Source of the DNA: Collinsella aerofaciens ATCC 25986 | GTDB lineage: Bacteria > Actinomycetota > Coriobacteriia > Coriobacteriales > Coriobacteriaceae | Length of the DNA: 64,000 nucleotides | NCBI RefSeq assembly: GCF_010509075.1 | Contig: NZ_CP048433.1 | Coordinates: 806,001 to 870,000, forward strand | Reading direction: 5' to 3' | Shown: piece after piece, positions 8,944-48,095 of the stretch | Layout of the letters: each line of letters starts with the position of its first letter | Numbering within the stretch: the stretch's first letter is position 1 | Position numbers and translations under genes: made by a program | The notes under the pieces: generated by a model | The model's input: the letters and a program-made list of their open reading frames with translations, nothing else | What the model was told of the DNA's origin: nothing | Databases searched by the model: none

Positions 8944-9029
8944 CGGGTTCGACCCCATGCGAGGTCAACAAAAAACGACCAGCCTGAGCCAGTCGCTTTA
9001 ACAATCTTTGGGTGGGCCGTCAGGGGGTC
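8944..9029. repeat. Direct repeat, copy 1, carrying a tRNA-Lys 3'-end fragment
   Basis: This 86-bp segment is over 90 percent identical to 9120-9206. It contains a tRNA-type terminator hairpin (CGACcagcctgagccaGTCG next to an A-run, read on the minus strand) and the last 18 bases of tRNA-Lys. After position 9029 the sequence leaves the tRNA abruptly. It looks like a scar of an earlier duplication or integration at this tRNA. Confidence 0.8.
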
Positions 9030-9119: not shown

Positions 9120-9206
9120 CGGGTTCGACCCCATGCGAGGTTAACAAAAAAGCGACCAGCCTAAGCCAGTCGCTTTAACATGCTTTGGGTGGGCCGTCAG
9201 GGGGTC
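9120..9206. repeat. Direct repeat, copy 2, running into attL
   Basis: Partner of 8944-9029. This copy holds the terminator hairpin that once followed the chromosomal tRNA-Lys gene on the minus strand and continues without a break into the 46-bp attachment core. Confidence 0.8.
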
Positions 9207-9233
9207 GAACCCTGGACCTTGGGATTAAGAGTC
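9188..9233. repeat. attL: 46-bp attachment core, displaced tRNA-Lys 3' end
   Basis: Identical over 46 bp to 48021-48066, where the same bases form the 3' half of an intact tRNA-Lys gene. At attL the tRNA sequence stops at base 9233 and continues into unrelated phage sequence. The identity is lost on both sides of the core. Confidence 0.95.
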
Positions 9234-11698: not shown

Positions 11699-12943
11699 TT
11701 ATTTCGCGGCCGCTTCGCTTAGGCCGCTGCTTTGAGTTGCCGGTTCTCCGCTATTGCGAGGGCTTGCCTCCGCTTGAATCGTCCCTCGGGTTGGCCTGCA
11801 TTGAGCACCCCCCTCCCGCGCGAGATTTTCGAACAGGCTGTGGTACAGCGCGTCCATGGCCAAAACGCTGCGGTGCGCGTCCAGCCGCTTCATGCCGCCG
11901 CGCCAGCTCTGGTAGCTCCGCTCAACCTGCTCGGGGGTCATGACGCCATCGGCGACCATGCGGGCCATCTTCTTCAGCTTGCGGCGCTCGCGCGTGATGG
12001 AGTCGCGGCACGGCTTCACGACTATGCGGCCCGTCTCCGTGTAGAAGATGCGCTTCTTCAGCCACGTGAAGCCGCGCGACAGCTTCACCACGCGGGTCTT
12101 GCGCGGGTTCAGCTCTATGCCCAGCTCGGCGCACTTGCGCCCTATCAGCAGCAGGCACACCTGCAGGTACTCCTTGCTCTCGTGGATCAGGTAGAAGTCG
12201 TCCATATAGCGCCCGTAAGACTCGGGGCGCAGCATCTCCGTCACATAGTGGTCGATGCGGTTGGGGTGGGCCACGGCGCATATCTGGTTCGGCTCGCTGC
12301 CCAGCCCCAGGCCCACATCGCCCTGCGCGTCTATCAGGCGGTGCTCCAAGGCGACCACGCGCGGATCTAGCAGCGCGGAGGCCACCTGGTCTTTGACGGG
12401 TTGGTGCGCTATGCGCGCGAAGTAGTCGGAGAAGTCGCCCAGGAGGATGTAGCCCTCGCGGCCGTGCCGCCTCCAGTGATCGGCCAGGTGGCGCTTGAGC
12501 AGCTTCAGGGCGTAGTCGGTGCCGCGCCCCTTTATGTTGGCGGAGTTGGCCGTTATGAGTGTCGGGACTATCGCGGGTACGAGGGCGTTCTGAGAAAGCG
12601 ACTTCTGAATCACTCGCTCTGGGAAGTGCACGGCGCTGATGTGGCGCAGCTTGCCGCGCTCCCACAGGTCGAAGCGGATGAAGCCCCGGCATATGTCGCG
12701 GCCCTCCAGAAGGTCGTTCCTCGATTTGACCGCGTTTCGCAGATAGTCCTTCATATAACGCTGCGTGGAGGACTTCCACATCACGCCGCCCGCCGCCTGC
12801 TTCGATGCCTTGCACAGGCTGTTGAGGTCGGCCACGGTATCAAGCGTGCACGCCTTGACGCGCTCGGCCTTGGCCCGCGCGCGCCTCTCCTCGCGGCGCT
12901 TGCGGCGCGCCGCCCGCCTTTGCTCGGAGTTCACAGGAGGCAC
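11699..12943 (-). CDS. DGR reverse transcriptase
   Basis: A 414-residue RNA-directed DNA polymerase. The polymerase active site is YMDD at residues 246-249 (GRYMDDFYLI), with the first catalytic aspartate in LLGDFSDYF (D170). The segment before YMDD that reads [LIV]GxxxSQ in most DGR enzymes reads GLGSEPNQI here, so serine is replaced by asparagine. The N-terminus is very basic (RRAARRKRREERRARAK), as expected for binding template RNA. No maturase, integrase or protease domain is attached. In a DGR this enzyme copies the TR transcript with errors at adenines and the cDNA replaces VR. It lies 204 bases after the TR in the same orientation. The start is a GTG; a second GTG nine bases on is possible. 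Confidence 0.93.
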   Translation of the reverse strand: MPPVNSEQRRAARRKRREERRARAKAERVKACTLDTVADLNSLCKASKQAAGGVMWKSSTQRYMKDYLRNAVKSRNDLLEGRDICRGFIRFDLWERGKLRHISAVHFPERVIQKSLSQNALVPAIVPTLITANSANIKGRGTDYALKLLKRHLADHWRRHGREGYILLGDFSDYFARIAHQPVKDQVASALLDPRVVALEHRLIDAQGDVGLGLGSEPNQICAVAHPNRIDHYVTEMLRPESYGRYMDDFYLIHESKEYLQVCLLLIGRKCAELGIELNPRKTRVVKLSRGFTWLKKRIFYTETGRIVVKPCRDSITRERRKLKKMARMVADGVMTPEQVERSYQSWRGGMKRLDAHRSVLAMDALYHSLFENLAREGGAQCRPTRGTIQAEASPRNSGEPATQSSGLSEAAAK

Positions 12944-13146
12944 CCCGCGCGGCTTGCAATGTGGCTCTGGCAGCCGCTTGAGGTATGGCCATGAAACGCG
13001 GCGAAGCCACGGAGCGCCGCGCCATGCAAGCAGCGTCCGGCCACCCTCGCGGGGTGCGTATTTACGGGCGCATGCCCGACGGTCGCGCCTTCCTTCCTCT
13101 TCGCGCTCTGCTTTCGGCTCTGGGGCCTACTCGGTCTGGCAATAAG

Positions 13147-13275
13147 GGAATCCGGGGCGGGGGCGAACCCAGACGTTCGTCGCGGAGTTGTAGTTGGCAT
13201 TGCCGTTGTTGTTGACGTAGCACACGTTGGACGACGAGCCACCCATGACGGAACGCAGCCACCAGTTGTACCGAT
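13147..13275 (-). repeat. DGR template repeat (TR)
   Basis: A 129-bp segment aligned without gaps to 13885-14013 (constant offset 738). It lies between the Avd and RT genes and is not part of a gene. Read in the VR frame it is full of AAC/AAT codons (nine asparagine codons in 43), the usual design that lets adenine mutation reach many amino acids. The end towards lower coordinates carries the GC-rich block CGCCCCCGCCCCGG, which corresponds to the initiation of mutagenic homing element (IMH*). Confidence 0.95.
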
Positions 13276-13298
13276 ATACAAGGCGGGACCGCCGTCCA

Positions 13299-13769
13299 TT
13301 ATAGCGAACGCAGGCGCTCTAGCTCGGCCTCGGCCTCGGCTATGCGCTCCTCGGTGGACTTCTTGCCGGTGACGCGCACGTTCTTGCGCGCGCCCTTCAG
13401 CAGCCTGATCTCCTCCTCGACCATGGCCGCCAGCTCCTCGAAGCGGTTGGCGTTCACGGGCAGGCCGATATCCATGAGGCACTGCATGTCCAGCATAAGC
13501 TGCTCGCAGTCCGCTATGGCCAGCGTCAGGTAGCGTTTCCTCTCCAGCGCGTTGAACGAGCTGTTGGGGTAGAAGCAGTCGGCGCGGTTGATGTTGTACA
13601 CGATGCCGCGCGCCGTCTCCACGGTCGGCACCGCGTTCAGCAGCCTGTAGGCCTTGGGCACTACCGAGGAGGACGCCATCAGCTTATTGACCTCCACGCG
13701 GATGGCGATGGCCTGCGTGAAGAACTTGTACTCGGACACCTCGCGGTTGCGCTGGTAGACGCCGCTCAC
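13299..13769 (-). CDS. avd: DGR accessory variability determinant (Avd-like four-helix protein)
   Basis: A 156-residue, mostly helical protein placed between VR and TR, the normal place of avd. Avd proteins form a positively charged barrel that binds RT and is needed for mutagenic reverse transcription. Helical blocks run over about residues 12-35, 55-80, 85-110 and 115-156, with the typical basic stretch LLKGARKNVRVTGKKS. The start is a GTG with a perfect AGGAGG five bases upstream; the upstream part of the open frame overlaps VR in another frame and is not coding. Somewhat longer than the usual 120-130 residues because of a charged C-terminal helix. Confidence 0.85.
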   Translation of the reverse strand: MSGVYQRNREVSEYKFFTQAIAIRVEVNKLMASSSVVPKAYRLLNAVPTVETARGIVYNINRADCFYPNSSFNALERKRYLTLAIADCEQLMLDMQCLMDIGLPVNANRFEELAAMVEEEIRLLKGARKNVRVTGKKSTEERIAEAEAELERLRSL

Positions 13770-13802
13770 GTGCACCTCCTGGGGAAACTGGCGAAAAACC
13801 CG

Positions 13803-13845
13803 GCCCGCTTCGCGGGCAGGAGGCGACCGCGCGAGGCGGTCGCCT
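13803..13845 (-). other. Twin hairpins downstream of the VR (DGR cruciform and/or terminator)
   Basis: Two hairpins in tandem: AGGCGACCGC-gcgag-GCGGTCGCCT at 13821-13845 and GCCCGC-ttc-GCGGGC at 13803-13817. They begin 29 bases beyond the target stop codon. On the minus strand the second has a GAA loop and is followed by a T-run. In the Bordetella phage DGR a hairpin shortly after the IMH increases homing; these could act the same way, or end the target transcript, or both. Confidence 0.65.
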
Positions 13846-13873
13846 AGAAGCAGAGTATAGAGCACTCGGCTGG

Positions 13874-14782
13874 CTAGCCGACGAGGAAGCCGGGGCGGGG
13901 GCGAACCCAGACGTACGTCGCGGAGTCGTAGCGGGCAATGCCGCCGCTGCTGACGTAGCACACGCCGGACGACGAGCCACCCACGACGGAACGCAGCCAC
14001 CAGTGGCACCGATTTCCGTTGACTCGGTGCGCCGTGTCTCGGAACAGGTCAAACTGGCAGTCGAAGCCCACGCTGTAGCCTTTCGTCCCCCACACGGGGC
14101 AGCCGTACACCTCCATCTCCGACAGCGAGAACACCTTGCCGATATCCTGCCAGCTCCACGAGTTGGAGTCGTTGAGCGCGCCGCTGGCGCTGTAACGCTC
14201 CTCCAGCAGGACGCGCTGGGTCAGCAGGTACTTGGTCAGCCCCTCGGGCAGGCAGGCCTCGAAGGCCGTCTCCCACGCCTTGAGGTTGCTGTTGGGGTAG
14301 GGGCATTTCTGGTCGGCGGTGCCCTGGTTCGTGTTGGTGGTGTTCCACATCAGGAAGCTGTCGTTTGCCACGCCTGTCACGGATTTTGCCACGGCCACGG
14401 GGGCGGACGCCACGAACGCGACGTGGTGCCCCTTGCTGTTGTCGCCGCAGTACAGGTACGGGTCGATGTGGGCCAAAAGGAAACGCACGGACTGCTGGGC
14501 GGCGACGGCGGATGCGCTCACGAGGGGCACGTCCAGGTAGTCGCCCACGCGAAGGCCCGCGAAGTTGCCGGCCGCCGCTCGCTTGTGCAGCGCGTCGTAC
14601 ACGCTGCCGCTGCCGATCTCTCCCGCCAGGATGGTGGCGATGTTCTGCCCGCCGTACTTGCCGATTTGGCCCTGGCGGTTGTACTCGGCGTTGTTGAGCG
14701 CCGTCTGCGCGTTGCTGCGCGCGGTATCGTCGATGACGTTGAGCGACTGGCCGCCGACGACCAGTGTCTTTGCATTTGCCAT
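13874..14782 (-). CDS. DGR target protein, probable receptor-binding tail protein with C-type-lectin-like fold
   Basis: A 302-residue protein whose C-terminal end is the variable repeat. The C-terminal domain (about 165-302) has the features of DGR-diversified C-type-lectin/formylglycine-like folds: WWLRS, a GGSSSG loop, VCYVSSGG, and VWVRPRPGF at the very end. The N-terminal part (1-60) has a low-complexity start with N/Q-rich helices (SNAQTALNNAEYN) that may attach it to the tail. Cysteine-containing loop residues occur at KCPYPN, YGCPVWG and FDCQFD. It is encoded immediately after the tail fibre gene in the same direction, so the likely role is binding the surface of the host cell. Confidence 0.9.
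   Translation of the reverse strand: MANAKTLVVGGQSLNVIDDTARSNAQTALNNAEYNRQGQIGKYGGQNIATILAGEIGSGSVYDALHKRAAAGNFAGLRVGDYLDVPLVSASAVAAQQSVRFLLAHIDPYLYCGDNSKGHHVAFVASAPVAVAKSVTGVANDSFLMWNTTNTNQGTADQKCPYPNSNLKAWETAFEACLPEGLTKYLLTQRVLLEERYSASGALNDSNSWSWQDIGKVFSLSEMEVYGCPVWGTKGYSVGFDCQFDLFRDTAHRVNGNRCHWWLRSVVGGSSSGVCYVSSGGIARYDSATYVWVRPRPGFLVG
13885..14013 (-). repeat. DGR variable repeat (VR)
   Basis: The 129-bp partner of TR, covering codons 257-300 of the target gene. It differs from TR at 15 positions; all are T on the + strand of TR, that is adenine in the coding sense. They change 11 residues (for example Asn to His, Gly, Ser, Ile, Arg, Asp, Tyr) and leave one silent change in the last variable glycine codon. 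104 non-adenine positions are all unchanged. Confidence 0.96.
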
Positions 14783-48019: not shown

Positions 48020-48095
48020 TGGTGGGCCGTCAGGGGGTCGAACCCTGGACCTTGGGATTAAGAGTCCCCTGCTCTACCAACTGAGCTAACGACCC
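48020..48095 (-). tRNA. tRNA-Lys(CTT), restored by the prophage
   Basis: 76 bases with encoded CCA. The anticodon loop CTCTTAA gives CTT. The 3' 46 bases after the anticodon stem are the attachment core and come from the phage. Compared with the second copy the T loop has one change (TTCGACC instead of TTCGAAC), which is also present at attL. Confidence 0.93.
48021..48066. repeat. attR: 46-bp attachment core within tRNA-Lys
   Basis: Identical to 9188-9233. Integration here keeps the tRNA gene whole. Confidence 0.95.

What the first reader, a model, noticed from the sequence alone, without database searches (positions are those of the whole stretch)
11699..14782. Complete diversity-generating retroelement in a Collinsella-type prophage
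Seen: RT with YMDD, an Avd-like gene, TR 13147-13275, VR 13885-14013 at the 3' end of a tail-linked gene, and hairpins after VR, in the order target-VR-avd-TR-RT. TR and VR align over 129 bp without gaps and differ only at 15 of 25 adenines (coding sense); none of the 104 other positions differs. Known: this pattern defines DGRs, first shown in Bordetella phage BPP-1. Inference: the element is or was recently active and alters the receptor-binding tip of the phage.
Basis: partly seen in the sequence, partly recalled or inferred. Interest (0 to 1): 0.88.

Follow-up and report, generated by a model that had tools for sequence, protein, structure and literature searches.

The report
Prophage element rewriting its own gene
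A virus sleeping in the genome of a gut bacterium carries a complete, well-known kind of machine that randomly rewrites one small part of a probable tail gene; it is a clear new example, and an RNA catalogued only as 'RT-2' sits exactly where the machine's guide RNA should be.

Summary
Confirmed: a complete diversity-generating retroelement (DGR) in a 38.8-kb Collinsella-type prophage, ordered as in phage BPP-1 (target-VR, accessory gene, TR, RT). TR and VR match over 129 bp and differ at 15 of 25 adenines and 0 of 104 other bases. A Collinsella aerofaciens strain has the identical TR but a VR differing at 12 positions, all TR adenines. In seven targets, this one included, residues from TR adenine codons differ in 74% of pairs, against 4% for other VR codons. 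So mutagenic homing has run recently; present activity was not tested. Refinements: the 3'-most adenine change is fixed (TR A, VR C in 9 of 9 close elements), so 14 of 24 is the better count; a hairpin overlaps the stop codon just after VR. The accessory gene matches no Avd family itself, but is homologous to genes in the same slot of other DGRs. Less ordinary: the TR-RT spacer is Rfam RF03077 'RT-2 RNA'. Searched by RNA model in Coriobacteriia genomes, it gave 23 loci: all have a related RT downstream, 22 a TR upstream. RT-2 is probably a DGR spacer RNA. Verdict: new member of a known kind.

The parts
11699..12943 (-). DGR reverse transcriptase, 414 aa, YMDD
   Evidence: Pfam RVT_1 43.2 bits; 26% identity to Brt of BPP-1 over 343 positions, E 1e-17; best solved-structure match 8ub7_A E 9.8e-13; dN/dS 0.15-0.35 against six relatives
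12920..13144 (-). spacer RNA between TR and RT: Rfam RF03077 RT-2 RNA, 2 nt after the end of TR
   Evidence: 135.5 bits against gathering score 40, whole model 1-222
13147..13275 (-). template repeat (TR)
   Evidence: 129 bp ungapped match to VR; identical in L083
13152..13165 (-). 14-bp all-G/C run of TR, (GC)14-like, followed by the fixed A at 13151
   Evidence: read; the terms (GC)14 and IMH from PMC3240598, passages
13299..13769 (-). Avd-type accessory protein, 156 aa
   Evidence: profile match to genes in the same slot of other DGRs, 97.4%, E 9.1e-12; no Pfam match
13803..13817 (-). terminator-like stem-loop with T run between target and avd
   Evidence: 5 such sites in the region on both strands, 3.2 expected by shuffling
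13821..13845 (-). second hairpin, 10-bp stem, 39 bp after VR
   Evidence: read; similar stems in relatives there; not tested statistically
13866..13881 (-). hairpin 3 bp after VR, 6-bp stem, loop AGCC, overlaps target stop codon; candidate target-recognition hairpin
   Evidence: 0 of 100 plain shuffles as good here, 3 of 100 for the nearly identical flank of L083; relatives
13885..14013 (-). variable repeat (VR), near the 3' end of the target gene
13890..13903 (-). 14-bp all-G/C run of VR, followed by the fixed C at 13889
   Evidence: read
13874..14782 (-). target gene, 302 aa, DUF6273, VR at the C-terminus
   Evidence: Pfam PF19789 32.3 bits, cut-off 23.5
9188..9233 (.). left attachment repeat (46 bp)
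   Evidence: exact direct repeat of 48021-48066
48021..48066 (.). right attachment repeat, 3' part of tRNA-Lys 48020-48095
   Evidence: undivided site in 13 of 43 genus genomes

Best explanation
A DGR of the BPP-1 type. The TR is transcribed together with the folded spacer (RT-2 RNA); the RT with its accessory protein copies TR into cDNA and misreads adenines; the cDNA replaces the 3' end of the target gene from the G/C-rich run upstream, helped by a hairpin just after VR. The 14 mutable codons of TR (AAC, AAT, TAC, ATG, ACG) can give about 3e13 proteins and no stop codon. The target most likely sits on the phage tail and binds host receptors. Shown here: the adenine-only TR/VR pattern, the same TR with a different VR, concerted TR-to-VR change at other bases, an open RT frame under purifying selection, a prophage with both attachment sites. 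Inferred: the biochemical steps (from BPP-1), the receptor-binding role and present activity.
For: Adenine-only differences, 15 of 25 against 0 of 104. Identical TR and 12 VR differences, all at adenines, in C. aerofaciens L083. In nine chosen elements, 431 of 442 pairwise non-adenine TR differences (31 positions; comparisons not independent) are mirrored in the two VRs, as TR-to-VR copying predicts. Residue differences among 7 of 16 aligned targets: 0.74 at 14 adenine codons, 0.04 at 28 other VR codons, 0.105 in residues 1-256. No stop reachable in TR codons. Of 153 loci found by RT similarity, 118 have an adenine-biased pair (the finder demands the bias, so this is a count, not a test). Gene order as in BPP-1. 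In Eggerthella lenta, same class, VR change in culture is reported (PMC8778435, passages).
Against: The accessory protein has no match to bAvd. The hairpin loop AGCC is outside the GRNA consensus of PMC3240598 (passages); over 59 distinct elements, stems after VR are not stronger than after TR by rank test (p 0.37), though 6-bp stems are commoner after VR (13 against 3). Target model too weak to show a C-type lectin fold. No read-level evidence of ongoing change.
Confidence: 0.96

Rival explanations
1. A DGR that is now silent: it diversified in the past, but this copy no longer works.
For: A relative, L104, has lost part of avd, TR and most of RT by deletion and keeps target and VR; in L199 the TR itself looks diversified. 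No direct evidence of present activity.
Against: RT, accessory ORF, TR, spacer RNA and target are all open or whole here; RT under purifying selection.
Confidence: 0.25
2. An old duplication of a gene end, with differences from ordinary mutation or recombination between relatives.
For: Two near-identical 129-bp stretches in one prophage would look like this at first.
Against: Zero of 104 non-adenine differences, found by direct alignment. The same pattern in 22 of 23 loci fetched with the spacer RNA, 299 of 594 adenines and 7 of 2248 other bases changed (the pair finder demands the bias).
Confidence: 0.01
3. The target is not a tail receptor binder but another displayed protein (for instance for adhesion to mucus or to other cells).
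For: DUF6273 occurs in several DGR target types, some with Ig-like domains (PMC10743442, PMC11792537; passages).
Against: It lies directly after tail genes and before lysis genes, as mtd in BPP-1; the short form resembles the published single-domain tgt2 type (234 and 294 aa) rather than the Ig-bearing one.
Confidence: 0.2

Closest known systems
Bordetella phage BPP-1 DGR (mtd-avd-TR-brt)
   Same: Same order, VR at the 3' end of the target, TR/VR differences beyond adenines only at the very 3' end, hairpin after VR, structured spacer RNA between TR and RT, tRNA attachment site and lysis genes on the RT side.
   Different: RT 26% identical; target and accessory protein not matched by profile comparison; spacer RNA is RF03077, not RF03022; hairpin loop not GRNA.
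Eggerthella lenta prophage DGRs (PMC8778435, passages)
   Same: Same bacterial class, prophage, mtd-avd-TR-ert layout, repeats of about 130 bp.
   Different: Not compared by sequence under that name; VR change in culture was reported there, not here.
DUF6273 DGR targets of gut phages: tentaclins and tgt2 (PMC10743442), Faecalibacterium phages (PMC11792537); abstract and passages
   Same: Target domain DUF6273 with VR at its C-terminal part.
   Different: Here one 302-aa target with one VR; the nd4 and nd12 systems of PMC10743442 have two targets, one of them (tentaclin) with Ig-like domains.
Roseburia phage Shimadzu (LR596903)
   Same: Best named phage: RT 53.8% identical over 82% of the query, target 33.0% over 73%.
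   Different: Different host; two diversified proteins are reported there (PMC11792537, passage), one found here.

Membership tests
Diversity-generating retroelement | Reverse transcriptase of DGR type beside the repeats | tested here: met
   RVT_1, YMDD; similar to Brt of BPP-1. No tree was built.
Diversity-generating retroelement | TR and VR that differ (nearly) only at TR adenines | tested here: met
   15 of 25 adenines, 0 of 104 others
Diversity-generating retroelement | VR inside a protein-coding target, TR noncoding | tested here: met
   VR ends 11 bp before the end of ORF 13874-14782; TR lies between avd and RT. Overlapping chance ORFs are listed there too.
Diversity-generating retroelement | Information passes from TR to VR | tested here: met
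   Concerted non-adenine change, 431 of 442 comparisons; same TR with different VRs
Diversity-generating retroelement | G/C run (IMH) at the 3' end of VR and TR | tested here: met
   CGCCCCCGCCCCGG in both; definition from PMC3240598, passages
Diversity-generating retroelement | Hairpin/cruciform after VR | tested here: inconclusive
   6-bp stem at 13881-13866, 0 of 100 plain shuffles as good (L083: 3 of 100); loop AGCC outside the GRNA consensus; no clear excess over TR flanks in 59 elements
Diversity-generating retroelement | Accessory protein Avd (many, not all, DGRs) | tested here: inconclusive
Diversity-generating retroelement | RT-dependent adenine mutagenesis in living cells | not testable with these tools
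   needs culture
Rfam RF03077 (RT-2 RNA) | Sequence and structure match above gathering score | tested here: met
   135.5 bits, cut-off 40, full length
DUF6273 / C-type-lectin-fold DGR target | Pfam PF19789 match | tested here: met
   32.3 bits, cut-off 23.5
DUF6273 / C-type-lectin-fold DGR target | C-type lectin fold with VR on its surface | tested here: inconclusive

The most novel reading that the evidence does not exclude
RF03077, which the Rfam output names only 'RT-2 RNA', is the spacer (RT-recruiting and priming) RNA of a DGR branch found in Coriobacteriia genomes and in viral contigs of unnamed host: the counterpart of RF03022 'Phage_DGR' at the same place in BPP-1. An RNA search can then find DGRs without repeats or proteins.
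Probability: 0.85. Interest if true: 0.5.

Novelty: new member of a known kind. Interest (0 to 1): 0.42.

Why it matters
Collinsella is a common human gut genus (recalled). Of 4 papers holding both 'diversity-generating retroelement' and 'Collinsella', 2 were listed, neither with a title about a Collinsella DGR; no paper held 'Collinsella', 'prophage' and 'retroelement' together. The library is partial, so this is no proof of absence. The element adds a clean natural comparison: identical TR with different VRs, a relative that lost the machinery, and a genome with a second, distinct DGR. Tying RT-2 RNA to DGRs would give a function to a catalogued RNA and a handle on how the RT is recruited outside BPP-1.

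Full report
The element. On the minus strand the order is target gene with VR at its 3' end (13874-14782), accessory gene (13299-13769), TR (13147-13275), spacer, RT (11699-12943). TR and VR align over 129 bp without gaps and differ at 15 of 25 adenines (10 G, 3 C, 2 T) and at none of 104 other positions. No further copy exists in the window; in the 2.46-Mb genome only two weak 15- and 20-base matches appear besides TR and VR. The RT matches RVT_1 above its cut-off, Brt of BPP-1 at 26% identity and, among solved structures, 8ub7_A best (that this is the BPP-1 enzyme is recalled, the table says only 'Reverse transcriptase'; its chain length, 328, equals that of Brt).

The prophage. Genes matching terminase, portal, protease, major head, tail tube, tape measure, tail proteins, then the target and DGR, holin and endolysin lie in order (not every ORF was scanned). 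A 46-bp exact repeat (9188-9233 and 48021-48066) coincides with the 3' part of tRNA-Lys, so the prophage is about 38.8 kb. The joined empty site is found undivided in 13 of 43 genomes of the genus (12 over the whole 160 bases, one over bases 4-160; 89-98% identity), and split in two in this genome. The nearest relatives by DNA are Collinsella aerofaciens strains: L083 97.7% over 12.5 kb and L086 98.0% over 13.6 kb. The genome itself is unnamed; Collinsella is inferred.

Evidence for homing. L083 has the identical TR; its VR differs from ours at 12 positions, every one a TR adenine, while TR differs at 0. The target gene before VR differs at 29 of 769 positions and the RT at 52 of 1241. Among nine chosen Collinsella-type elements, where two TRs differ at non-adenine bases the two VRs follow their own TR in 431 of 442 comparisons covering 31 positions (pairwise, not independent). 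Among the exceptions is L085, whose VR keeps other bases at two sites in its 5' half; this would fit incomplete conversion of the 5' part of VR, or exchange with the second element of that strain (L083). Residues encoded by the 14 mutable adenine codons differ in 0.74 of pairs among seven targets (this one included; 16 were aligned), other VR codons in 0.04, residues 1-256 in 0.105. No stop codon can arise by changing adenines of the TR codons, and the theoretical repertoire is about 3e13 proteins.

Refinement of the count. The 3'-most differing adenine (TR A, VR C) is identical in 9 of 9 close elements. It lies 3' of a run of 14 G/C bases. In BPP-1, TR and VR also differ at several bases at the very 3' end; that these are the fixed IMH differences is recalled, the terms (GC)14 and IMH are from PMC3240598 (passages). 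So 14 of 24 adenines is the better measure of diversification. In the more distant element L011 the corresponding VR base is T, so the mark is not universal.

Hairpins. A 6-bp stem with a 4-base loop starts 3 bp after VR and overlaps the stop codon; in BPP-1 the stem likewise begins at the mtd stop codon. None of 100 plain shuffles of the flank did as well, 3 of 100 for the nearly identical flank of L083. Relatives have other stems at the same place, for instance GGCTGA-TTTA-TCAGCC in L005. But the loop does not fit GRNA, and over 59 elements the rank test between VR and TR flanks is not significant (p 0.37), although stems of 6 bp or more follow 13 VRs and 3 TRs, and 15 VR against 6 TR flanks beat 95% of shuffles. 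A second, longer stem lies 39 bp after VR and a terminator-like stem follows; either could contribute.

Accessory protein. By itself it matches no Pfam family and not bAvd. Its alignment matches that of proteins in the same slot of more distant DGRs on viral contigs (97.4%, E 9.1e-12). One homologue, L177, has a sub-threshold match to 23S_rRNA_IVP, E 0.061. It is Avd-type by position and homology to slot-mates; the fold was not tested because the job did not finish.

The spacer RNA. The 203 bases between TR and RT are well conserved; a consensus fold of ten sequences has 48 pairs, 10 with at least one two-sided compensatory change. The stretch matches Rfam RF03077 (RT-2) end to end at 135.5 bits. 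Of 17 RT-similar loci with RT-2, 16 have a called TR, and the RNA starts 2 to 22 bases after it; in L068 no pair was called. I then searched whole genomes with the RNA model rather than with RT or repeats: 7 of 43 genus genomes and 19 of 396 class genomes have it (strict filters, sampled genomes), 23 distinct loci in all, this window among them. In 23 of 23 a relative of this RT lies directly downstream, and in 22 of 23 an adenine-biased TR/VR pair is present with TR ending 0 to 13 bases before the RNA; 299 of 594 adenines and 7 of 2248 other bases are changed. Two cautions: the name RT-2 suggests that the family was collected near RTs, so RT adjacency is partly built in, and the pair finder demands adenine bias; the fit of TR position is the real test. 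Several of the 23 are close relatives. The exception, L199, does have a repeat pair, but its TR-side copy seems diversified too. In BPP-1 the same place holds RF03022, named Phage_DGR, and passages of PMC12875486 say that this spacer folds, recruits RT-Avd and primes cDNA. So RT-2 is most likely the spacer RNA of another DGR branch. The Rfam 15 paper lists it as RT-2 in a table (PMC11701678, passage). Searches for a published link found none, but the founding paper is not held, so I do not claim that the link is new. RT-2 is absent above the cut-off in 34 of 51 RT-similar loci scanned, so it marks one branch.

What is known. DGRs are a large known class (for instance PMC8144416, passages). DUF6273 targets are published (PMC10743442, PMC11792537; abstract and passages), and VR change of a DGR in Eggerthella lenta, same class, is reported (PMC8778435, passages). 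Word counts in the main text: 'Collinsella' and 'Coriobacter' 0 in PMC3521204, PMC4159848 and PMC6642488, 'Coriobacter' 0 in PMC8144416, 'Collinsella' 0 in PMC12629997. The finding is a new member of a known kind, with the RT-2 link as the part worth following.

Noticed in passing
L180:5858-7372 (own genome, C1 about 285857-287371): A second, distinct DGR in the same genome: TR and VR of 113 bp, 15 of 21 adenines changed and 0 of 92 others. Target ORF of 541 aa lies among ORFs that look by eye like portal and head genes, no accessory gene seen; no RT-2 RNA; RT match sub-threshold, 24.5 bits.
   Followed up: partly
L104:8841-10847: A C. aerofaciens relative lost part of avd, TR and most of RT in one deletion of about 1.5 kb; target and VR remain, VR differs from this TR at 13 adenines and nothing else. 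A natural frozen VR.
   Followed up: partly
L199: TR-side copy next to RT-2 RNA seems itself diversified: 14 differences in 124 bases, 6 A->C and 8 others, 5 of them towards A, while the A/C mark at the 3' end is kept. Possible self-hit of TR.
   Followed up: partly
L084:8932-18114: Two DGRs with converging RTs on one contig, each with RT-2 RNA; ORFs between them look lysis-like by eye (not searched). Perhaps neighbouring prophages.
   Followed up: no
L018:7764-9745: A second accessory-like ORF, RT-2 RNA and RT follow the first DGR directly, without a detected second repeat pair.
   Followed up: no
L085:8931-9797: VR carries, at two non-adenine sites in its 5' half, the bases of the TR of L083 rather than of its own TR; both elements come from one strain, so exchange in trans or partial conversion is possible.
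   Followed up: no
window 9011-9029: A 19-bp piece of the same attachment sequence lies just outside the left end, as from an older integration at this tRNA.
   Followed up: no
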